Assembly (NCBI GenBank): GCA_017519045.1 | Contig: JAFWTC010000063.1 | Span: 1 to 64,000 of the forward strand | Source: Candidatus Methanomethylophilaceae archaeon | GTDB taxonomy: Archaea > Thermoplasmatota > Thermoplasmata > Methanomassiliicoccales > Methanomethylophilaceae | Direction: 5' to 3' | Length of the DNA: 64,000 nt | Shown here: piece by piece, positions 3,904 through 24,053 of the stretch | Numbering within the stretch: position 1 is the stretch's first letter | Layout of the letters: the number at the start of each line of letters is the position of its first letter | The notes under the pieces: generated by a model | What the model saw: the letters and a program-made list of their open reading frames with translations, nothing else | Databases searched by the model: none | What the model was told of the DNA's origin: nothing | Made by a program: the position numbers and the translations under genes

Positions 3904-5352
3904 CTACGGTAAGACCATGGGGCTCGGACCCATCCGGCGCCTTCGGCTGAAGAATTGCGCGATGTCCTCGCCGGCGTCCTCGCTCAGCCTCCTCACGGCC
4001 TCCACCGCCGCGTCGCTCTCCGTCCTCGCGTCGCAGGAGAAGAACGACACCCTGCGGAAGTCCCTCTCCGCGGAGTTCACCAGGTTGAAGTAGCCCTCGT
4101 CGGCCATCCTGTCCCTGAGCTCCTTCCCGGACAGCCCGCTCAGCGGCCCGGGGACGTCCGCATGCGTAACCACGACGGCCAGCGGCAGGTCTATCGTGAC
4201 GGACGCATCCATCCTGTTGAACTGGCGGTACCTCTCCACGAGCACCCTGTATGCGTTCAGGGCTACGTCCTCGGGGCGGTCGCACGTGGGGTCCAGGGCG
4301 AACGCCAAGGTGTCGGTGTAGGCGTACTGGGGCTGTATGTCGGCTTCTATATGGCCGGTGAAGAACTCGCCTCCGACGTCGAACATGTATAGGAGCCTGC
4401 ACGTGTCGAGCCTGCTGGACTCCAGCTTCACGATGTTCGGCATCTGGAAGGAGGCGGGAGTGGGGTCGCAGGTCCCGGCGCGGTATTTCGCCAGTTCCGG
4501 TCCCTCCCATGCGTGGTAGAGGAGGGCCGAATCGGCCTTGCCGTTCCCGGAGGTGGACAGGACCCTCCCTATGACGGAGTGGACGAAGCTCGTCTTCCCG
4601 GAGGACGGCGCCCCGGCGACGGATATGACGAACGGCCTGCCCTCCTTCGTCTCGAGAATCGAGGAGCAAAGCGGGCACGTCTGAGCCAGATCTTTTCTCT
4701 TGCCTTTGGACCCGAAGCAAGGGAAGGACGCGGATTCCATCTCCACCGTGAATATGCCCTCTTCGCTCGGGCGCAGACCCAGGATCCCGCTGCCGCAGAC
4801 CTCGTAGAACGGGCGGTCGGAGGCCCTGCCGCACTCCGGGCAGACGAGACGCTTGGTGTTGTGCCTGTACTGACGCTTGTCTATGGTCTTCGCCACAGTC
4901 ATGACGACGTAGTAGCCGGCGTCGACGAGCGCCAGGTATGGAATCAGCAGAATCGCCATGATGACTGTCACGACCAATATGGGGAAGAATATGGGGAAGA
5001 GCGCTATGCTGAACATGAGGACCCACATGCCTAGATTGTAGAACTCGGACGCCAAGCTCTTCCACATATTGCTTAGTCCGATGAATGGCACGGGATACTT
5101 ATCCGGATCGGGGACCTTCTGCTTCATTTCGAAGTGCTGGCCCAACGTGCCGAAGCAGATGATCAGGAACCCCAGGCAGCCGATCACGGTGGGGGCGGCC
5201 TGGAACGGTCCCGTGTCGTCAAATACGTAGGAGAAGAAATCGAACGGGAAGACCGTCAGCAGGAACCCGAAGAAGAGGTACGTGAGCAGGCAGGCAGGAA
5301 CGAGCGGAACGATGAAAGCCAGGTTCCAGACCGCCGAGTTCAGATTCTTCAT
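3904..5352 (-). CDS. Membrane-anchored zinc-ribbon GTPase-like protein
   Basis: The 482-residue protein has about four hydrophobic segments in the first 160 residues (roughly 10-35, 55-75, 108-130, 130-155). Two zinc-ribbon half sites follow (CPECG near 171, CPLCS near 226), then a P-loop NTPase domain with Walker A GAPSSGKTS near 247. LLYMFDVGGEF, Asp-containing as in a Walker B/G3 motif, and VVVTHADVPG as a G4-like motif point to a GTPase of the TRAFAC class. Its ATG overlaps the stop of the upstream beta-propeller-like gene (ATGA, 5349-5352), so the two are translationally coupled. The gene ends with TAG and further TAGs follow in frame, with no coding-like sequence between them. It resembles the GTPase at 57055. 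Confidence 0.7.
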   Translation of the reverse strand: MKNLNSAVWNLAFIVPLVPACLLTYLFFGFLLTVFPFDFFSYVFDDTGPFQAAPTVIGCLGFLIICFGTLGQHFEMKQKVPDPDKYPVPFIGLSNMWKSLASEFYNLGMWVLMFSIALFPIFFPILVVTVIMAILLIPYLALVDAGYYVVMTVAKTIDKRQYRHNTKRLVCPECGRASDRPFYEVCGSGILGLRPSEEGIFTVEMESASFPCFGSKGKRKDLAQTCPLCSSILETKEGRPFVISVAGAPSSGKTSFVHSVIGRVLSTSGNGKADSALLYHAWEGPELAKYRAGTCDPTPASFQMPNIVKLESSRLDTCRLLYMFDVGGEFFTGHIEADIQPQYAYTDTLAFALDPTCDRPEDVALNAYRVLVERYRQFNRMDASVTIDLPLAVVVTHADVPGPLSGLSGKELRDRMADEGYFNLVNSAERDFRRVSFFSCDARTESDAAVEAVRRLSEDAGEDIAQFFSRRRRMGPSPMVLP

Positions 5353-7649
5353 CGTTCCTCACTCTCTTCGGACTCGTCGATCGTCGTCCTGGCGCCCTTC
5401 GTGGCTATGAACAGGGCTCCGGCCTTGTGCACCGTGTATTCCCCGGTGGACACCTCGGCGAACAGGCGGCGGTGCTCCTCGTCCCCGCTGTACAGCAATC
5501 TCTTTCCACGGCTCCTCAGATGCTCGTAGTCCCTCCAATCCGCCGGGACTATGCTTCCTCCGCGGATCTTGAACTCCATGTCGTCCAATGAGCAGGAGCT
5601 GCCATCGAAGCCCCTTATGTGCGGAATGCGGCCGCGCTTGGAGAGGGGCTCCTCCGCGATGACGTCCGGCCCTTCTATCCTGAGGACGAAGAGCCCCTTG
5701 CGATACTCGATCGAGGCAGTCATGCTCCCGCGGGACACGGTGGAGACCGTCTCGCTGTCCGTGACCCTGAAGCGGCCGCCGTCGAGCACGAACATCCTCC
5801 TGTCGCAGACCGCTTCCGGTCCTTCGCCCGAGAGCCTGCACAGGCCCCACATGAGAAATCCGCTCCCGGAACGGACTATCTCGATCTCCTTCAGGGCGGA
5901 TCCCAGGTCCGGATGGGCGCTCGGAGGCTCCCCCTCGTAGGTGAAAGGCACGTCGATCACGGCCTCGGCCGCATCCTCGACCATGCCCAGGCGCAGCGCG
6001 GCCAGTATGACGCGGGTCCTCGCCCAGCCGACCTTCCTCTTCCTTATCCTGACCAGCCTCGCGCCGTCCTCGAGCGGGGTGGAGGAGACCGGGGAAGGCG
6101 GCTCCATCGACCCGGGATACGGATGGGTGAAGTCGTCCCTGTCCAGCACAATCGCGGCATCGCCTATGGGAATGACGAAGGCGCCGTAATCCTCCAGAGG
6201 AACGAACTTCTCGCATCCGCGGGGCACGCAGGTCGCGTCCCTGGGGCTGCCGTAGGACTCCTTGGAGGCTCCGGTGAAGTATCCCTCCCTGAACCTCTCC
6301 TCCCCGCGCCTGTAGTCTATCGCGATCCCGCCTTCGGCGCCGTCCGACTCGGCGAGATATCCCTATACGGGGGCGAAGGGGACGTCGACCTTCCTCTCCT
6401 CCCCCAAAGGACGGAGGAGCAGGTCGTAGTCCTGGATGCCGGCGCATACGATCCCGTCGTCCGGGCAGTGCGCCACCGTGATGGAATCCTCTCCGCGGGA
6501 GATTATGCGCCCTCTCAGGCACCTCTCCTCGTTCTTCGGGTAGTTCGCCCCGGAGCTGACGTTCCAGGCCTCTATCCTGCCGTCGTCGTCCTCCAGAGCA
6601 ACGTACCTCCCGCCTCCGTAGGTGACGCATCTGAGGAGTTCGTTCATGCGCATGTTCGGGCTGCTGTACAGCTGCCCCTCCGTCCCCTTGAGGTTATAGC
6701 GGACCATGGATCCCGCGGAGGCGTCCATCATCCTGAGGAGCGCCCTCTCCGACCCGTCGTCGTCCTTCAGGCCTTTCGAGACCACCATGTACCTCCCGTC
6801 GTCCGACGATACCGCTATGCCGTCGGAGATCCTGTCCTCGACGACCGCCGTGCGGCTCCTCTTGAGGATATCCTTCGAGATCTTGTACGACGTCAGCCTG
6901 TCCTTCGTCAGGATAACCGCCCTGCCGTTGGAAATGGCTGCGGCGCGGACGTCCCCGGCCGTTATCTCGGGCCATTCGTACTTCTTGAAGGACATGTCCG
7001 AATGGGACAGCATCCCGTACTCGCGGCGGTCGAACGCGCCTCCGCGCTCCCTGGTCGCGAGCTGGACGTCGCCGTTGGCAGACAGGAGGACCGCTTCCCA
7101 CCCGCGAGGCACGTTCTCGAACCCGCTCCTGTTGAAGGGATCGGATGTCAAGGGGCCCTTCTTCCAGTTCCTGACGGACCAGGACACGCGGCCGATGTTC
7201 AGGGTCTCCGAGTCCGGGAACGACAGGTAGCCATGACGCATGTACCTCCATTCGTCCAGAAAATGCTCGTCCAGGAGGTCGGTCCTTATCGATACGATCG
7301 GCCTCATCTCGCCGGCGGCCAGTATGGTCACCGTCCTGTAGTCCATGCATGCGCACAGATCCCCCTTCGGTGACATGACCACGTCATGGGCGGAGAACTG
7401 GGGGTGGCCGGAGACCTCCGGCTGCGGGATGAATCCGTGCGCCCTGCAGAGCTCCGACAGCCTCTCTATCAGCGGCTGCCCGTCGGCGAGCGTCTTGTAG
7501 TGCTTCATTGCGAAATCCACCGAAGAGGCCATCGCGAGAAACTCGACGTTCTGCAGGTCCGGTTCCTTGAATCTGTTCAGCGCCTCGGAAACGGCGCCAT
7601 AGAACGAATCAGGGTCAAGCATCAGCTCAGTAATTGATTCCTTTTCCAT
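5349..7649 (-). CDS. Beta-propeller-like protein interrupted by one in-frame UAG (possible pyrrolysine readthrough)
   Basis: Two frames, 6366-7649 (428 codons) and 5349-6362, lie in the same phase and are separated only by the TAG at 6363-6365. The 45 codons after the TAG carry no ATG but have the composition and codon use of coding sequence. The first alternative start is a GTG at 6227 without a clear ribosome-binding site. The upstream part has repeated Ser/Gly/Asp-Gly blade-like strands (for example SANGDVQLAT, SSDDGRYMVV, DDDGRIEAWN), as in WD40-type propellers. The downstream part is an all-beta domain I do not recognise. Methanomassiliicoccales decode UAG as pyrrolysine, so a single 766-residue product is possible. 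Two adjacent genes or a nonsense mutation are the alternatives. It is coupled to the GTPase gene. Confidence 0.6.
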
Positions 7650-15376: not shown

Positions 15377-15432
15377 TGCTAACCCTCGTTTTGGTGCTCG
15401 GAACGGGGTATGCTAACCCTCGTTTTGGTGCT
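15377..15432. repeat. Two 22-bp direct repeats before the DUF4143 ATPase gene
   Basis: Positions 15377-15398 and 15411-15432 are identical (each starts TGCTAACCCTCG and ends TTTTGGTGCT), a 34-bp period. The second copy runs directly into TTATTTTAATA, a likely TATA element for the ATPase gene, so the repeats may be regulator sites. Confidence 0.8.
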
Positions 15433-15463
15433 TATTTTAATACTGGCAATCCGATGTCCATCC

Positions 15464-16816
15464 ATGGCGTCTTCGGCTGGAATCTTCAAGAGAAAAATCT
15501 ACGACGACTTGCTGTCATGGAAAAGGGACTATTCCGACAGATATGCCGTCATGGTCGAAGGTGCCAGGCGCGTGGGGAAAAGCACGGTGGTCGAAGAGTT
15601 CGCCAAGAGAGAATTCAAATCATACATCCTCATCGACTTCGGGAACGCCAGCGATTTCGTCAAGGGCCTCTTCAAGCGCTATCCGAACGATCTGGACAGA
15701 TTCTTCCTCCTTCTCGCCTCCGATTATAACGTGAATCTGGTCGAGCACGAGAGCGTAATCATATTCGATGAGGTCCAGCTGTACCCGCTGGCCTATCAGA
15801 TGGTGAAATACCTGGTCAAGGATGGCAGATACCCTGTCATCGAGACCGGATCGATGGTCACCCTCAAAATGAAGACCCGGGTGCTAATACCGTCGGAGGA
15901 GATCACCCTGAGAATGAATCCTATGGATTTCGAGGAGTTCCAATGGGCGCTCGGAAGGGAGGGGAGCCTGAACCTCTGCAGGGATGCGTTCGAGAGGATG
16001 GAGGCGTTGGACAACGGGGTCCACAAGCGTCTCATGGACGACTTCACCACGTATATGCTGGTCGGGGGAATGCCTCAGGCGGTGTCCGAGCTCATATCGT
16101 CCAACGACTTCATCAAGGTCGAGAAGGCAAAGGAGACGATACTGGACCTCTATCGCAACGACGTGATGAGGGAGGACGACCCGATTCTCGCATCCATGTA
16201 TTCCAGCCTTCCGTCTCAGCTGAACAGGACCCGCAAGGTGTTCTCGCCAGGGGTGGTGAAGAAAGGGACCAAGAGCAGGACGTACATCAGAAGGGCGTCG
16301 TGGCTGAAGGAGTCCGGGCTGGTCAACCCCTGCATCCTCTGCACCGATCCCGACCCCGCCTTGGACCAGTTCGAGGACGTGTCGGCGTTCAAGCCGTATC
16401 TGGTCGACACGGGGCTCCTCCTCACGATGTGCATCAGGTCCAACATGGCGGACAGGCAGGAGATATACCGCGAGATCCTGGCCGGAAGGCTCGGGATGAA
16501 CAAGGGGATGTTCTTCGAGAACATGGTTGCCCAGACCCTCGTCGCCAACGGGGTACGCCTCCATTACTACATGTTCGAGGACTCCGGAAGGAAGTATGAG
16601 CTGGATTTCCTCATGGCGGACGGGAAGAGGCTGGTGCCGATCGAGGTCAAGTCGGGAAGGTCCGGATCCCATCCCTCGCTGGACGCGTTCATGGGCAGGA
16701 ACCGGAGGAGGGCCAAGGTCGGCTACGTCGTCCATTCCAAGAATCTGAGGGTCGAGGGCGACGTCGTCTACCTGCCGATCTATCTGCTTTGGCTGCTGGG
16801 CAGGCGTCCGGCCTGA
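15464..16816 (+). CDS. AAA-type ATPase with C-terminal DUF4143 (PD-(D/E)XK-like) domain
   Basis: The 450-residue protein has Walker A GARRVGKST near residue 33, Walker B-like VIIFDEVQL, and the DUF4143 tail with GMFFENMVAQTL, YELDFLMADG and PIEVKSG, the last a degenerate nuclease-like core. Such ATPases are numerous and mobile in archaea and bacteria. Their function is unclear, and links to defence or toxin-antitoxin behaviour are often suggested. I start at the ATG at 15464 (MASSAGIF). An ATG further upstream lies inside the direct-repeat promoter region and gives a hydrophobic, unlikely leader. Confidence 0.85.
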   Translation: MASSAGIFKRKIYDDLLSWKRDYSDRYAVMVEGARRVGKSTVVEEFAKREFKSYILIDFGNASDFVKGLFKRYPNDLDRFFLLLASDYNVNLVEHESVIIFDEVQLYPLAYQMVKYLVKDGRYPVIETGSMVTLKMKTRVLIPSEEITLRMNPMDFEEFQWALGREGSLNLCRDAFERMEALDNGVHKRLMDDFTTYMLVGGMPQAVSELISSNDFIKVEKAKETILDLYRNDVMREDDPILASMYSSLPSQLNRTRKVFSPGVVKKGTKSRTYIRRASWLKESGLVNPCILCTDPDPALDQFEDVSAFKPYLVDTGLLLTMCIRSNMADRQEIYREILAGRLGMNKGMFFENMVAQTLVANGVRLHYYMFEDSGRKYELDFLMADGKRLVPIEVKSGRSGSHPSLDAFMGRNRRRAKVGYVVHSKNLRVEGDVVYLPIYLLWLLGRRPA

Positions 16817-17978: not shown

Positions 17979-19646
17979 TCATGATGACTTGTGGGCGCGA
18001 ACACTTCTGCCTTCATCAAACATTTCAATGGTAAATTGTCCAGTGTTGATAATTGGCCACCTTTTCAGGACTTTTTCCAATAGTGCTTGTTGGCGGTGTT
18101 CTATTTCTTCGACACCCCATTTTTCATACTCGGCTATTTGACGGGTTTCTTCAATACTGGATTTTATGTATTCTTTCTTCTTTTCATCAAATAGTTTGTT
18201 GCTAATTATCCGATTTTTCTTTCCGTCTAATAGGATCATGTTGCCAAAGCGCACATGGTATTCCTTCCATGACTCGTGTTCTATCTGCCAGTCTTTGGGT
18301 TTCTTCGGTAATATATGTTCTAAATGGACATCCTTGCCCCTGTTGGTGATTTTTGTTTCGGTATGGCTATAGTTGTAAATTTCAACTAGGAGTAGTTTAC
18401 CGACACCTTCTTTGGGGGAGAATTTGGCGAAAGAAGAACTTACATCGGAGTCGGAGTCTGTAGTTGCGTATATTTCCGATAGTATTTGATCGGGTGTTTT
18501 AAGACCTTTAGATAATGATAAAGCCCACTCTGAATATTTTCTTTCATTTTTGTTAGCCGTCTTTTTGCCTATGACCTGATTTCTTAGAATCTGCGTCTCA
18601 ATCGCTTTTACGATTGAAGGGATCTAACATTTGTTGTCAGTATTGTATAAAGCGATTACTAATGGACAAAATGAACTGGCTCCGAATTGTTTCAAATTTT
18701 TTAGGCAGTCCACTGTATCATCATCAAAAATGGTACTTTTGCTATCTGGATTTACGATTTCTATATACAATTCCTCTGAATCAAACAGTCCTTTAAGGAA
18801 ATCATACAGGTCGGCATCGGGAATTTTGCTTATTCTATCGAATAGTTCTTTTTCACGAATAAACTCGTTAAGTGAGTTCCAGTAATATTTGATAAATTGG
18901 GTGGTAGCTTTAGGTCCTATTTTGGAGATTTTGTCTACCATCTCAATCCAGTTGTTCTTTATATATTCGTGATTTTTGTCCAGCCTGCTGAAGAAGTGAT
19001 TTTTCAAAAGATCTGGAACTTCTAAGGGAGATCCTCTTGCATTCAGAGTTTCAAATACGGTAAATGCCTGGGATAGAGAATCTGTTTCAACGTAAGAAAT
19101 GTGGAAACCATCAAGGAACCTAGTGGCGAGAATCTTGAGTTTATCTGGTGATTCGTCGTCGTTTCCTATGTACTCTATGGTTTGATCGTAAAGCTGCTGG
19201 TATGCATTTTTTAGTTTACGATCTATGTCCCGTTTCGGCTTATAGTCATGATTTGCACCTTGAACATAGTTCATGAAGAATTCTCTGCTATCATAACCGC
19301 TGGTCAGACGGTATTGTTCATCTGCAAATCCTATTGCATTATTGATTTTAGTACGTAAGGAGTCAATATCGTATTTTCTTTCTTTTAAAATATCACGTAT
19401 TACGCAAAGGAATATTGTGGATGTAGTGATTCTTTGTTGCCCGTCGACAATGTAGTTAATCGTATCGTCGTGGTGAATGATTATTTGCCCGAACAGGTAG
19501 TATTCGTCTTTACGGGTAATGAAGTTTTTCAGGTCTGTAAAAAAATCGTCTATATTGTCTTCGGTCCAAGAAAAGGATCTTTGATATTCAGGTATAGTTA
19601 GGTTGTTGGTAAATAACTCTTTAATTGCTTTATCAGACCACTTCAT
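17979..19646 (-). CDS. GmrSD-like type IV restriction protein (DUF262-DUF1524) with one in-frame UAG
   Basis: The first 340 codons form the DUF262 domain, with the NTP-handling motif VDGQQRITT near residue 68. After the TAG at 18624-18626 the same frame continues for 214 codons and supplies the DUF1524 HNH nuclease domain: HLEHILPKKP near 441, RFGNMILLDGKKN and SNKLFDEKKK. The join is seamless: SFCPLVIALYN before and IVKAIETQILRNQVIG after correspond to adjacent family segments. GmrSD and related enzymes cut modified phage DNA. Without readthrough the product would lack its nuclease. The DNA is AT-rich relative to the backbone, indicating transfer. Pyrrolysine insertion, suppression or a pseudogene are the alternatives. 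Confidence 0.75.
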
Positions 19647-19676: not shown

Positions 19677-20627
19677 TTAGATCTTACGATAATGAATGAT
19701 TAAGGAGGATAGTGGTAAAGGGCTGTGGTGAAGGTCATTATACAATCCAAAGACTCTATTTGGTTGAATCAATAATCGGACATTCTGGTTTTTGTTATGT
19801 TCTACCATTTTACGCATAGTTTCATGTTGATCATGTATGAAATCACGATTTGAAGGGTAGCAATCAAGGCATGAAGGGCGATCTGCACTTGCATGGTAAT
19901 TTTTTCCACAGATGTAACAGTGGCCTTCCGGTTCAGTATAAGAAAAATTGTTGTATCTGGACCATGAGTCCAGACATCTTCCACAATAAAAATATGGGTG
20001 ATTTGAAGGAATGATATGATTACAACGGATGCAATGGCATTTGCGCAATGGGGTATCAACAGGTTCAGGGGCGTTATCGACTTCTGGCTCGTCATTGCTG
20101 CCGCCATCTAGACAGGACAGGTCTGTTTGAGATCTAGGTGTTGATCTCCATCCAAATAATCCGGATGGTATTTTGCGTATGCACTCGTCGTTCCATAGCC
20201 CGTGTGTTTTTTCTGCCATGTCTATAAGACGAGCGGCATGGAATGCCAGGTCCTTATACCCTCTACGATCCCTTTTATCGAATATGACGCCTAGTTCTTC
20301 ATTATTGATTTGAGAGAATGTGTATATGTTCATGGACATGACAATGCCCGCGAGTTCCATCATGAATATTTTGGCATGGACATTTTTAATGTATCCAATT
20401 GATGAGTTATGCAATCCTTTAATCCATTTTTCAGTATCGTCATCGAGTTCTTTCTTTCCATAGATAAAGAATGTTTTTACCCCTCTATCATCAGCGATTT
20501 CTATGATCTTTCTCAGTCTGTCGTTAATCATAAGATATGGGCTGGTTATGAAGATAAATTTCTGAGAGTCTTCAGCCATATGTGCAATTGCTGAATTCAG
20601 GTCATGTGTATCCAGAATACCGGGCAT
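19677..20627 (-). CDS. PLD-like nuclease-domain protein with zinc ribbons
   Basis: Residues 1-150 resemble a phospholipase D-superfamily nuclease domain, with a KFIFITSPYLM strand and one HxK motif (NVHAKIFMM) followed by SMNIY in place of the usual serine/asparagine residues. Only one HKD half is present, as in dimeric members. The C-terminal part holds several Cys pairs (CHCIRCNH, FYCGRCLD, CYICGKNYH, SCLDCYP), probably two to three zinc ribbons. It sits 30 bp upstream of the GmrSD-like gene on the same strand with matching AT-rich composition. I infer a role in the same defence island. Confidence 0.7.
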   Translation of the reverse strand: MPGILDTHDLNSAIAHMAEDSQKFIFITSPYLMINDRLRKIIEIADDRGVKTFFIYGKKELDDDTEKWIKGLHNSSIGYIKNVHAKIFMMELAGIVMSMNIYTFSQINNEELGVIFDKRDRRGYKDLAFHAARLIDMAEKTHGLWNDECIRKIPSGLFGWRSTPRSQTDLSCLDGGSNDEPEVDNAPEPVDTPLRKCHCIRCNHIIPSNHPYFYCGRCLDSWSRYNNFSYTEPEGHCYICGKNYHASADRPSCLDCYPSNRDFIHDQHETMRKMVEHNKNQNVRLLIQPNRVFGLYNDLHHSPLPLSSLIIHYRKI

Positions 20628-20690: not shown

Positions 20691-22505
20691 TTAAAAATCC
20701 ATCGTGCCGCTTTGGGATCCTATCCTGTCCAGTATTATCCCGATGGCATGTTTCAGGCCGTCATCGTCTTTTCCCGGGACCAGGGGGATGGCTCCGACAG
20801 ATGGCAATACCATGCCTTCACGCTCGTCCCAGAATTGCTCGTCCGGCGGCTTCACATAGTATTTCCCCTCTCCCGTTCCAGGATATAGGACGTACGACCC
20901 CATGCTTTTCAAGAGGGCGTCGCGGTACGTGTGCATCTTGTAGATGTCGTATTCCCAGCAGCCTATCTTCATTTCAGAGTCTTCGATGGCGATTTCAGAC
21001 GGGTCCTTGAGTTTCACCTTGTATTTGGAATCGAAGTTGATGATGCTCTTGTTCCCGTTGTTGGTTATGACCAAGGTGAAGTCTGGGCGGAGGCGTATCG
21101 AGTAGGACCTGAATTCTTCGATGTCCTGATCGAAGTCCTTGTTATAGTAGAACTCCACGGTGTATTCCCCGGATCTGCGGATTATCTCAAAACTGATGGG
21201 CTTCCTGAACGTCACAGTCTTGTTCTTGCCCGAAACTCTTAACGGAGGCTTGTTATCAGACATTTCAAAGAGGCATTGGTACAGTTTCAGATAGCACCAG
21301 CACTCATACGTCTCGTATACTTTCTTCTCATGTCCTCTGATCAGCTCCGGTCCCTCGTCCATTCTGAATTCTATGCTCATCCCGAGGACGATGTACGCTT
21401 CGAACAGCTCTCTGTATCCTTGTCTTTTCAGAAGCACCGTGGATTCGAACGGTTCATGTTCTAGACGCTTCACGTCCTCTAGCCATCTGTCTGATAGAAG
21501 ACGGTCGATGATCGAAGCCATGTCGAGAAGGCTGTCGTGAACGTATCCAGCCTGATTCATGAGAAAGCTTTCCATCAAAGTGTGGATGCGATCTTGAATC
21601 CTTATCAGAAGGTCTTTGACCAGCCTGTTTTCCGGAGTGTCCAGGGTTTCCTCGTACACGGTGTTCGGAATGTATTCGGGAGCGGCCCTCAGCCCCGGCA
21701 TGTTCGATACGTTCCAGCAGCCGCCGCTTGAGAAATGAACGATGTCGGATGGATCTATGGAGTATGCGCATCCGCTAGGCGCCATGTTTTTGACCTTCAT
21801 CAACACGGCATACGGGTTCCTGCGCACGTATTCGTATGAGGATTCCAGGTCTAGTTTTTCGAATATGTATTCCAGGATCAGAAAATCTTCATAGAAGTCG
21901 GAATCCGTTTTCGGTGACAATCCGTAGTTTCTGAACAGCGGCGATTTGTAGTCCAAGATAGCAGGCAAGGAGATCTCTGCTATCTCAGCTAGCATTTGCG
22001 GGTAATGGGTGAGGTATTCGATCTTTTTGGACCTCATCTCAAACGGAATCGATATGGTATCACTATAGTACTCGATATCGAAGAACCCTTTGCCCACATA
22101 GCTTTTCGAGTATAGTCTGTATGATTTTTCATTGTCGTCGGAGTTGAATATGCTGGGTTTCAGTATAAGGTCTGTATTCGACAAGGATTTGAGCCGATTC
22201 CCGACTCCGGCTATAGATTTCAGCTCCATCTCATATTCAGTTTCTTCAGACAGCAGTATGGGAGAAAGGTACGGGTCATCTCCACAATATATCTGTATGC
22301 CGACGTTAGGGTCGATTTCAGACTTTTCCCTAATGAATTGGATGTTCTGGGAGTTTTCTACATCTATGTACTCAGGAGGCTTGATGTCGGATGGCACATC
22401 GCCTGGAATATGGCCGACGCAGGCAATTCTCAGAGTGGCCACTAGACGATCTCCGATACGGAAGTCTACAGACAGGATCTGTTGGCCCTCAGTTGAAGGA
22501 TACAT
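20691..22505 (-). CDS. McrC-like nuclease subunit (DUF2357 plus PD-(D/E)XK)
   Basis: The 604-residue protein has a long N-terminal region of DUF2357 type and a C-terminal PD-(D/E)XK nuclease core: LRPDFTLVI, then INFDSKYKVK, the DxK motif seen in McrC-related proteins. It is the nuclease partner expected next to an McrB-type motor. I start at the ATG at 22505 (MYPSTEGQQ), which overlaps the end of the McrB gene by 17 bp. A longer start at 22574 adds residues without family look. Composition is intermediate between the AT-rich island and the backbone. Confidence 0.8.
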   Translation of the reverse strand: MYPSTEGQQILSVDFRIGDRLVATLRIACVGHIPGDVPSDIKPPEYIDVENSQNIQFIREKSEIDPNVGIQIYCGDDPYLSPILLSEETEYEMELKSIAGVGNRLKSLSNTDLILKPSIFNSDDNEKSYRLYSKSYVGKGFFDIEYYSDTISIPFEMRSKKIEYLTHYPQMLAEIAEISLPAILDYKSPLFRNYGLSPKTDSDFYEDFLILEYIFEKLDLESSYEYVRRNPYAVLMKVKNMAPSGCAYSIDPSDIVHFSSGGCWNVSNMPGLRAAPEYIPNTVYEETLDTPENRLVKDLLIRIQDRIHTLMESFLMNQAGYVHDSLLDMASIIDRLLSDRWLEDVKRLEHEPFESTVLLKRQGYRELFEAYIVLGMSIEFRMDEGPELIRGHEKKVYETYECWCYLKLYQCLFEMSDNKPPLRVSGKNKTVTFRKPISFEIIRRSGEYTVEFYYNKDFDQDIEEFRSYSIRLRPDFTLVITNNGNKSIINFDSKYKVKLKDPSEIAIEDSEMKIGCWEYDIYKMHTYRDALLKSMGSYVLYPGTGEGKYYVKPPDEQFWDEREGMVLPSVGAIPLVPGKDDDGLKHAIGIILDRIGSQSGTMDF

Positions 22506-23841
22506 ACCGCTGCTTCTCCAGGGTCTTGACCATCCTCTCGATTCTAGATGCGGACCTGTCGTATCCCCCGTCAATGCAGATTGATTGCATGGATTTCAGT
22601 CCGTCAGCGATCTCCTGTCCTCCATGTATCTTCGGCAGGATCTTCTGCTTGACCTGGGAGTCGAAGAACCTCTTGTATTGATGGAAGTCGCCGTGTCCGG
22701 TATAGTTCCAGGCGGCGTACATGAAGCGCATGATTTCGTCGATGGTCCTCAAGCCTATGGGAAGTCCCATTGACTCCATGCATTCCTGCAGCTTCTCAAG
22801 GTCATCGGCGATCGTGTCGGCAACCTGGCCGTTTCCAGAGGAGCGGATCGCTTTGATGATGTCGGGGCCTTTCATTCTCCTGATGGCTACCCCGTTCATG
22901 CAGTCTTGGAGATATTCCACATTCCCTGCTGGAGTTCCATTCGGTCCATTTCCGGACAGATAGGAAGATGCGGGGACGGAACTGAACTCTATGACGTTGG
23001 CGCGGTCAAGGACCTTGGGCGAGAACGTGTATGTTGTCTCATCCACGTTCACGGTTCCGACTATCATGAGGTTGTCGGAGATCCGCACCTGATCTGGGAT
23101 GGAGTCGTCGCTCCCGTTGTCGATGCATATCGCCTCCCCGCTTTCCATGGAAGACAGGATGTCCGAGAAATAGCGCTCCACGTGGGAGAGGTTCATCTCG
23201 TCCAGAATCAATAGGAACGGCTCGCCCGGGTTTCTATTAGCCTGGACGATCAGGTCTAGCGATTCGGTGCTTGAGTACTTGCCGTTCAGAACATTCCTGT
23301 ATCCTATGATGAAGCGGCTCTCGGTCCAATTCGATCCTACCGGGACGATACGATAGTTGCTGCCGGAGGTCTTTCCTTGGGGGATGAACATCCGAAGGAC
23401 TTCTTTCTCCTTTCCTTCAGTTTTCAGCCTTGTTATTTCGTCAGCCAGCTCATCGCTGTCCCTGAACCAGAAACGCGGGGTCAGATCGATTTCTCCCGTG
23501 GACTTGACGTTTCCAATCTCCACCTTGTATTCGCCATTGGCTTTTCTCCCGTCGAAAGGAAGGTTGTTGAAGAATTCATCTCTGCTCAGCGTGAATCCGC
23601 GGTTCTTGTCCGATTTGTTCAGGGTCACGCTGAACTCTGCCGTTTTGTATTCCTGGCCGGGTTTCGATATGAACCTGCCGTAAGCTTGAGCCAGTTTTGT
23701 CTTGCCGGTTCCGCTTCCTCCGCTTAGAATCACGAAAGGCTTGACCTTCAGAGATAGCAGGAAATCTTCGACCGCCTCAATAGGGAAGAATAGTTTTTCT
23801 TCTGATAGATAGTCGAAGAAATTGATACGGTCGCTTGCCAT
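22489..23841 (-). CDS. McrB-like AAA+ NTPase of a type IV restriction system
   Basis: The 450-residue protein carries Walker A GGSGTGKTK near residue 44, Walker B LLILDEMNLSHVERY, and the McrB signature GTVNVDETTYTFSPKVLDRANVIEF in short form (GTVNVDETT, then SPKVLDRANVI). McrB hexamers drive cleavage of modified DNA by the McrC nuclease. The usual N-terminal DNA-recognition domain is missing: the AAA+ core starts almost at once. Recognition may lie in the DUF2357 partner. I use the ATG at 23841; a TTG seven codons upstream is possible. It is the first gene of a coupled pair. Confidence 0.88.
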   Translation of the reverse strand: MASDRINFFDYLSEEKLFFPIEAVEDFLLSLKVKPFVILSGGSGTGKTKLAQAYGRFISKPGQEYKTAEFSVTLNKSDKNRGFTLSRDEFFNNLPFDGRKANGEYKVEIGNVKSTGEIDLTPRFWFRDSDELADEITRLKTEGKEKEVLRMFIPQGKTSGSNYRIVPVGSNWTESRFIIGYRNVLNGKYSSTESLDLIVQANRNPGEPFLLILDEMNLSHVERYFSDILSSMESGEAICIDNGSDDSIPDQVRISDNLMIVGTVNVDETTYTFSPKVLDRANVIEFSSVPASSYLSGNGPNGTPAGNVEYLQDCMNGVAIRRMKGPDIIKAIRSSGNGQVADTIADDLEKLQECMESMGLPIGLRTIDEIMRFMYAAWNYTGHGDFHQYKRFFDSQVKQKILPKIHGGQEIADGLKSMQSICIDGGYDRSASRIERMVKTLEKQRYVSFN

Positions 23842-24053
23842 AAGACAGCGTATGTCGTTCAAGTTGATAGGGTTTGTCTGATTCCATTACTGTAACAGGT
23901 AGAGAACCCATACGGTATCACTATAGTTCTATTTGGTGATGGGTATCCGCATGCTACGTTCGATTATTATTAGTACAGTCGATTTCGAAATCATCAAAGA
24001 TGTGGGGAAGTTTTTCGCCAATTAGAAATACCCCTTCGTATGTAACAATAATT

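What the first reader, a model, noticed from the sequence alone, without database searches (positions are those of the whole stretch)
17979..19646. GmrSD-like restriction gene carries one in-frame UAG between its two domains
Seen: the frame is open for 555 codons with a single TAG at 18624-18626. The DUF262 part (DGQQR) lies before it and the DUF1524 HNH nuclease part (HLEHILP, GNMILL) after it, with no gap relative to the family. Known: Methanomassiliicoccales decode UAG as pyrrolysine in methylamine methyltransferases. Inference: the defence nuclease is made only when UAG is read through, so restriction could be tied to pyrrolysine supply; otherwise this is a fresh nonsense mutation.
Basis: partly seen in the sequence, partly recalled or inferred. 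Interest (0 to 1): 0.85.

Follow-up and report, generated by a model that had tools for sequence, protein, structure and literature searches.

The report
Amber codon inside a restriction-enzyme gene
A DNA-defence enzyme gene in a methane-producing archaeon is interrupted by one UAG codon that this organism, which carries the complete machinery for the 22nd amino acid pyrrolysine, most likely reads through as an amino acid, as it appears to do in about 20 of its other genes; the case is real but has precedents in this group.

Summary
On the minus strand, 17979-19646 is one 555-codon frame with a single UAG (codon 341). All GmrS motifs lie before it and all GmrD (HNH) motifs after it. There is no gap against relatives. 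The genome encodes tRNA-Pyl and pylSBCD, and its mtmB genes carry the usual UAG.

The most informative control was genome-wide. Coding sequence continues in frame past 21 of 110 UAGs, but past only 2 of 1027 UGAs and 0 of 142 UAAs. UAGs interrupt prephenate dehydrogenase, a DbpA helicase, LarC, ABC transporters and, notably, cas3 (twice) and cas6e of a type I-E CRISPR operon. UAG is therefore a sense codon in many genes here, which makes read-through more likely than a fresh nonsense mutation.

The site is a variable polar position at the start of a linker helix. Relatives have sense codons there, which suggests neutral capture. Re-initiation cannot rescue the nuclease, because the next start codon follows the HNH motif. 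Nothing here supports restriction being regulated by pyrrolysine supply beyond the trivial dependence.

Precedents exist in the order (Cas1 in M. alvus, Cas3 in ISO4-H5). Verdict: new member of a known kind. Read-through itself is unproven without peptide data.

The parts
17979..19646 (-). GmrSD-like (DUF262-DUF1524) gene, 555 codons plus TGA stop, single in-frame UAG
18624..18626 (-). in-frame UAG, codon 341, at the N-terminal turn of predicted helix 339-359 in the inter-domain linker; variable polar column in 28 homologues (E 7, K 6, D 4)
18990..19625 (-). GmrSD_N / DUF262 domain (residues 8-219)
19431..19445 (-). DGQQR motif (residues 68-72), invariant in 28 homologues
18075..18398 (-). GmrSD_C / DUF1524 HNH nuclease domain (residues 417-524)
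18306..18326 (-). HLEHILP nuclease motif (residues 441-447)
18252..18254 (-). first in-frame start codon (GTG, codon 465) after the UAG; it lies beyond the HLEHILP motif, so re-initiation cannot give a working nuclease subunit
18598..18617 (-). 8-bp RNA hairpin starting about 6 nt after the UAG; only mildly more stable than shuffles (z -1.9), significance unclear
19677..20627 (-). PLD-like protein (weak PLDc_2, below cut-off), 30 nt upstream of the GmrSD-like gene; probable same operon
20691..22574 (-). McrC-like protein: DUF2357 + PD-(D/E)XK (PDDEXK_7)
22489..23862 (-). McrB-like AAA ATPase (PDC-M26A; weak McrB match), first gene of the low-GC island

Best explanation
The gene is an intact, horizontally acquired GmrSD-like modification-dependent restriction enzyme in a pyrrolysine-decoding archaeon, consistent with Methanomassiliicoccales. 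Its UAG is read as pyrrolysine by tRNA-Pyl for some fraction of ribosomes, giving a 555-residue two-domain nuclease with Pyl341 at the start of a linker helix. The rest terminate, giving a 340-residue DUF262 fragment without nuclease. The UAG arose by a point mutation at a position that tolerates many residues, mostly polar ones, and was kept because suppression makes such mutations nearly neutral here. Shown: the frame, the domains and motifs on either side, the complete pyl cassette, the UAG-specific continuation of coding sequence genome-wide, and the variability of the site. Inferred: actual decoding, its efficiency, the activity of the protein and its DNA target.
For: Complete cassette: tRNA-Pyl, pylS, pylB and pylC, pylD; both mtmB genes have the in-frame TAG. 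Coding potential continues in frame past 21/110 TAG, 2/1027 TGA and 0/142 TAA (Fisher P 1.4e-21, and P 0.002 after correcting for mutational opportunity). UAGs fall inside single Pfam domains of housekeeping genes: prephenate dehydrogenase, LarC, ABC ATPases, and relatives carry sense codons at the dehydrogenase and helicase sites. UAGs also occur in cas3 (codons 91 and 550) and cas6e (codon 157). A UAG in another gene of this window is shared by orthologues in two other species. In the GmrSD-like gene itself there is no other stop or frameshift, all family motifs are kept on both sides of the UAG, and our copy shows no excess of unique changes after the UAG (21 versus 19 in G002; 19 versus 27 before it; Fisher P 0.39). 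The site is permissive.
Against: No peptide or activity data. UAG is still used as a terminator: about 55 of 110 UAG-ended genes have a very short or clearly non-coding continuation, so read-through is not assured at any one site. No relative keeps a UAG here: all intact homologues in the order have sense codons, and one distant copy (G073) is a wreck with stops in three pieces. Defence genes in low-GC islands may decay more easily than housekeeping genes, and a very recent nonsense mutation would leave no other trace. Single assembled genome; a sequence error or strain mixture cannot be excluded.
Confidence: 0.76

Rival explanations
1. Fresh inactivating nonsense mutation: the UAG ends translation in practice and the gene is a young pseudogene.
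For: The UAG is unique to this copy. About half of UAG-ended genes in this genome look like genuine UAG terminations. Defence genes are frequently lost, and the G073 homologue is broken.
Against: In-frame stops inside otherwise intact genes are almost all UAG in this genome (21 UAG, 2 UGA, 0 UAA). All four internal stops found in its two defence operons are UAG (P about 0.03 by mutational opportunity). There is no other lesion and no sign of relaxed constraint after the UAG.
Confidence: 0.18
2. Assembly error or strain heterogeneity: the real codon is a sense codon one base away.
For: A single genome in 86 contigs with 91% completeness; no second genome of the species is held.
Against: The frame is otherwise perfect over 1.7 kb, and a substitution error that happens to give UAG rather than another codon is improbable a priori.
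Confidence: 0.04
3. The UAG splits the gene into two working cistrons, GmrS and GmrD, as in the two-subunit enzyme of E. coli CT596.
For: Two-gene GmrS/GmrD forms exist (PMC4619093, PMC4437046), and the UAG lies between the two domains.
Against: The next in-frame ATG/GTG/TTG is codon 465, after the HLEHILP motif at 441-447, so re-initiation would give a nuclease without its catalytic histidine.
Confidence: 0.02

Closest known systems
GmrSD / BrxU family of Type IV restriction enzymes (DUF262-DUF1524), also PADLOC HEC-06
   Same: Both Pfam domains over cut-off, full-length profile match E 3e-124, all published GmrS and GmrD motifs, fused single-chain order, defence-island context
   Different: One UAG codon between the domains; DNA substrate unknown; the Foldseek best match is the phosphorothioate-sensing DndI, then SspE, with BrxU weaker
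Non-methyltransferase amber-containing genes of Methanomassiliicoccales (Cas1 in 'Ca. M. alvus', PMC4153887; Cas3 among 46 genes in ISO4-H5, PMC5011839)
   Same: Same phenomenon: an in-frame UAG in an otherwise intact gene, including defence genes, in a pyl-bearing archaeon
   Different: No earlier case in a restriction enzyme was found in the papers read here; this genome uses UAG as a stop more often (at most 8.6% of genes, roughly 4% if only short or non-coding continuations are counted) than 'Ca. M. alvus' (1.6%)
MtmB, MtbB and MttB methylamine methyltransferases
   Same: UAG read in frame; the same genome carries them with UAG
   Different: There the UAG is conserved and its residue is functional (established knowledge); here it is unique and at a variable position

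Membership tests
GmrSD-family Type IV restriction enzyme | DUF262 (GmrS) domain with (I/V)DGQQR, QR and FxxxN motifs | tested here: met
   Pfam E 7.5e-34; VDGQQR 67-72, QR 22-23, FETLN 198-202, nearly invariant in 28 homologues; motif definitions from PMC4619093
GmrSD-family Type IV restriction enzyme | DUF1524 (GmrD) HNH domain with (E/D)HxxP, GNLxLLxxxN, NxxFxxKK and the W...R...W motif | tested here: met
   Pfam E 1.3e-23; LEHILP, GNMILLDGKKN, NKLFDEKK and WGVEEIEHR...W read directly, all downstream of the UAG
GmrSD-family Type IV restriction enzyme | Cleaves modified (e.g. glucosylated) DNA and not unmodified DNA | not testable with these tools
   No assay; the fold is also close to phosphorothioate-sensing DndI and SspE
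Genome that decodes UAG as pyrrolysine | pylT, pylS, pylB, pylC and pylD present, and mtmB with in-frame UAG | tested here: met
Pyrrolysine-containing protein | Peptide with Pyl at the UAG position | not testable with these tools
   Needs mass spectrometry
Pyrrolysine-containing protein | UAG-specific continuation of coding sequence in the same genome | tested here: met
   21/110 UAG versus 2/1027 UGA and 0/142 UAA
Functionally required (conserved) Pyl site | UAG conserved at the same position in orthologues | tested here: not met
   Relatives have Cys or other sense residues; no intact homologue in the order has a UAG
Pseudogene | Further stops, frameshifts or lost motifs | tested here: not met
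   None found in the 555 codons

The most novel reading that the evidence does not exclude
Restriction in this archaeon is conditionally gated by pyrrolysine: both its type IV nuclease (GmrSD-like) and its type I-E CRISPR effector genes (cas3 with two UAGs, cas6e with one) can only be made full length when Pyl-tRNA is charged, so immunity falls and rises with methylamine metabolism, and the UAGs are kept for that reason and not as neutral passengers.
Probability: 0.07. Interest if true: 0.85.

Novelty: new member of a known kind. Interest (0 to 1): 0.42.

Why it matters
It adds a restriction enzyme, and in the same genome a CRISPR effector operon, to the list of genes that apparently depend on UAG decoding outside methylamine metabolism. 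If confirmed, two layers of antiviral defence in a methanogen would depend on the pyrrolysine machinery, which would make that cassette costly to lose and would confine transfer of these genes to hosts that decode UAG. Standard gene callers would annotate the gene as a truncated DUF262 protein and miss the nuclease.

Tried and rejected
Split-subunit (GmrS + GmrD) reading: rejected, no start codon before the HNH motif. Relaxed selection after the UAG: tested by relative rate against G002 and G013, no signal (P 0.39). Conserved UAG in homologues: looked for in 147 genomes of the order with the protein and with the HEC-06 model, none in an intact copy. Close homologues in named genomes: the single-sequence scan gave none; the profile scan gave only distant relatives, mostly about 22-32% identity. 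First structure model from 3 sequences was useless (pLDDT 43); the 28-sequence model reached 87. Special recoding element after the UAG: an 8-bp hairpin is there but only z -1.9, so not claimed. The TGA reported inside the G013 homologue is simply that gene's own stop.

Full report
CHECK OF THE OBSERVATION. The feature is on the minus strand. Reading 17979-19646 on '-' gives ATG ... TGA with 555 codons and one internal stop, TAG at 18624-18626, codon 341. Pfam finds GmrSD_N at residues 8-219 and GmrSD_C at 417-524. The full-length PADLOC HEC-06 profile spans 11-531 with E 3.2e-124. The published family motifs (PMC4619093) are all present: QR (22-23), VDGQQR (67-72) and FxxxN (198-202) before the UAG; LEHILP, GNMILLDGKKN, NKLFDEKK and the W...R...W motif after it.

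SURROUNDINGS. The gene is the last of four minus-strand genes in an AT-rich island (36-53% GC in a genome of 59.8%). The island holds an McrB-like AAA ATPase (22489-23862), an McrC-like DUF2357 + PD-(D/E)XK protein (20691-22574), a weakly PLD-like protein (19677-20627) and the GmrSD-like gene, which starts 30 nt after the PLD-like gene ends. The whole reads as a type IV, modification-dependent restriction island. That description is by family names only; no substrate was tested.

HOST. The genome has tRNA-Pyl(CUA) at C8:64703-64776, pylS of 273 aa, pylB, pylC and pylD side by side, and two mtmB genes with the usual single UAG; MtbB and an MttB-family gene also carry UAG. The short PylS and gene content fit Methanomassiliicoccales, but that assignment is inference.

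DOES THIS GENOME READ UAG AS SENSE OUTSIDE METHYLAMINE GENES? I rebuilt 1.9036 Mb of the genome from fetched stretches and made a simple hexamer gene finder. Among 1279 genes the stops are UGA 80.3%, UAA 11.1% and UAG 8.6%. I then asked how often strong coding signal continues in frame directly after the stop, before any start codon (gap of at least 10 codons, score above 5). The answer was 21 of 110 UAG, 2 of 1027 UGA and 0 of 142 UAA (Fisher P 1.4e-21). Because nonsense mutations in this high-GC genome favour UAG (opportunity 0.62), I also compared 21 of 23 with that share: P 0.002. Several of these UAGs lie inside single domains: the prephenate dehydrogenase domain, the LarC domain and ABC transporter ATPase domains; another sits at the boundary of the DbpA RNA-binding domain of a helicase. 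Relatives in the genus have sense codons at the dehydrogenase and helicase sites. Two UAGs lie in cas3 (codons 91 and 550) and one in cas6e (codon 157) of a type I-E CRISPR operon on contig C66. About half of the UAG-ended genes have very short or non-coding continuations, so UAG is still a stop elsewhere: decoding is ambiguous.

THE SITE ITSELF. The closest relative (G002, 60%) has Cys at the aligned position with no gap; G013 (48%) has a slightly longer loop. Across 28 homologues the column is variable and mostly polar: E 7, K 6 (one of these being the query's own stand-in letter), D 4, others. In a confident AlphaFold2 model (pLDDT 87) residue 341 is in the first turn of helix 339-359, in the all-helical linker between the two domains. 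Foldseek puts the model next to DndI, SspE and BrxU. No intact homologue in 147 genomes of the order carries a UAG; a remote copy in G073 is broken by stops into pieces. Comparing changes unique to our copy with those unique to G002, before and after the UAG (19:27 and 21:19), gives no sign of relaxed constraint after it (P 0.39). This test has little power if the UAG is recent.

MECHANISM. Most likely UAG341 is read as pyrrolysine in part of the translation events, giving the full nuclease, with a DUF262-only fragment as the by-product of termination. Separate production of the nuclease half by re-initiation is ruled out by sequence: the first in-frame start after the UAG is codon 465, beyond the HLEHILP motif. 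The UAG is best seen as a neutral capture. A simple weighing: about 20 genes of this genome carry apparently read UAGs, while about 3 inactivating UAGs would be expected from the 2 UGA/UAA interruptions seen, so roughly five to one for read-through; all four internal stops in the two defence operons being UAG (P about 0.03) pushes the same way. I put read-through at 0.76.

WHAT IS KNOWN. Borrel et al. 2014 (PMC4153887) listed 16 non-methyltransferase amber genes in 'Ca. M. alvus', Cas1 among them, and argued that in a tRNA-Pyl context an in-frame amber would be a stable mutation. The ISO4-H5 genome paper (PMC5011839) reports 46 amber-containing genes including cas3 and 10 insertion elements. 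From memory only, not checked here: neutral acquisition of Pyl has been described for a Methanosarcina tRNA-His guanylyltransferase, and recent proteomics reports Pyl in further archaeal proteins. The present gene is thus a new member of a known kind. The restriction-enzyme identity, and the coincidence with UAGs in the same genome's CRISPR genes, are the new elements.

WHAT REMAINS OPEN. The regulatory reading (immunity follows pyrrolysine supply) is logically possible but has no positive evidence.

Noticed in passing
window 5349-7649, minus strand (UAG at 6363-6365, codon 429): A second in-frame UAG in this window: a 766-codon gene with no Pfam match. Orthologues in two other species of the genus (G001 80% identity over the whole length; G026 67% locally) also have one UAG within about 40 residues of the same place, so this looks like a conserved pyrrolysine site outside methylamine metabolism, potentially more interesting than the finding given.
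   Followed up: partly
L087:1590-9794 minus (own genome, contig C66): Type I-E CRISPR-Cas operon with in-frame UAGs in cas3 (codons 91 and 550) and cas6e (codon 157); cas5e has a UAG near its end with about a dozen further codons open.
   Followed up: partly
L153:9299-11689 plus (own genome, contig C84:29299-31689): A NifH-like protein (CfbC-like) is joined in frame through a UAG to a nitrogenase-component-1-like protein (CfbD-like), with no start codon for 44 codons after the UAG.
   Followed up: partly
L053:7289-8407 minus (own genome, contig C32): The only chorismate mutase-prephenate dehydrogenase found carries a UAG inside its nucleotide-binding domain; relatives have sense codons there.
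   Followed up: partly
window 18598-18617 minus: An 8-bp RNA hairpin begins about 6 nt after the UAG of the GmrSD-like gene; z -1.9 against shuffles, so it may be chance.
   Followed up: partly
window 15410-16816 plus and L105:15220-16560 minus: AAA_14/DUF4143 ATPase family proteins; the second one continues in frame 44 codons past a UAG.
   Followed up: no
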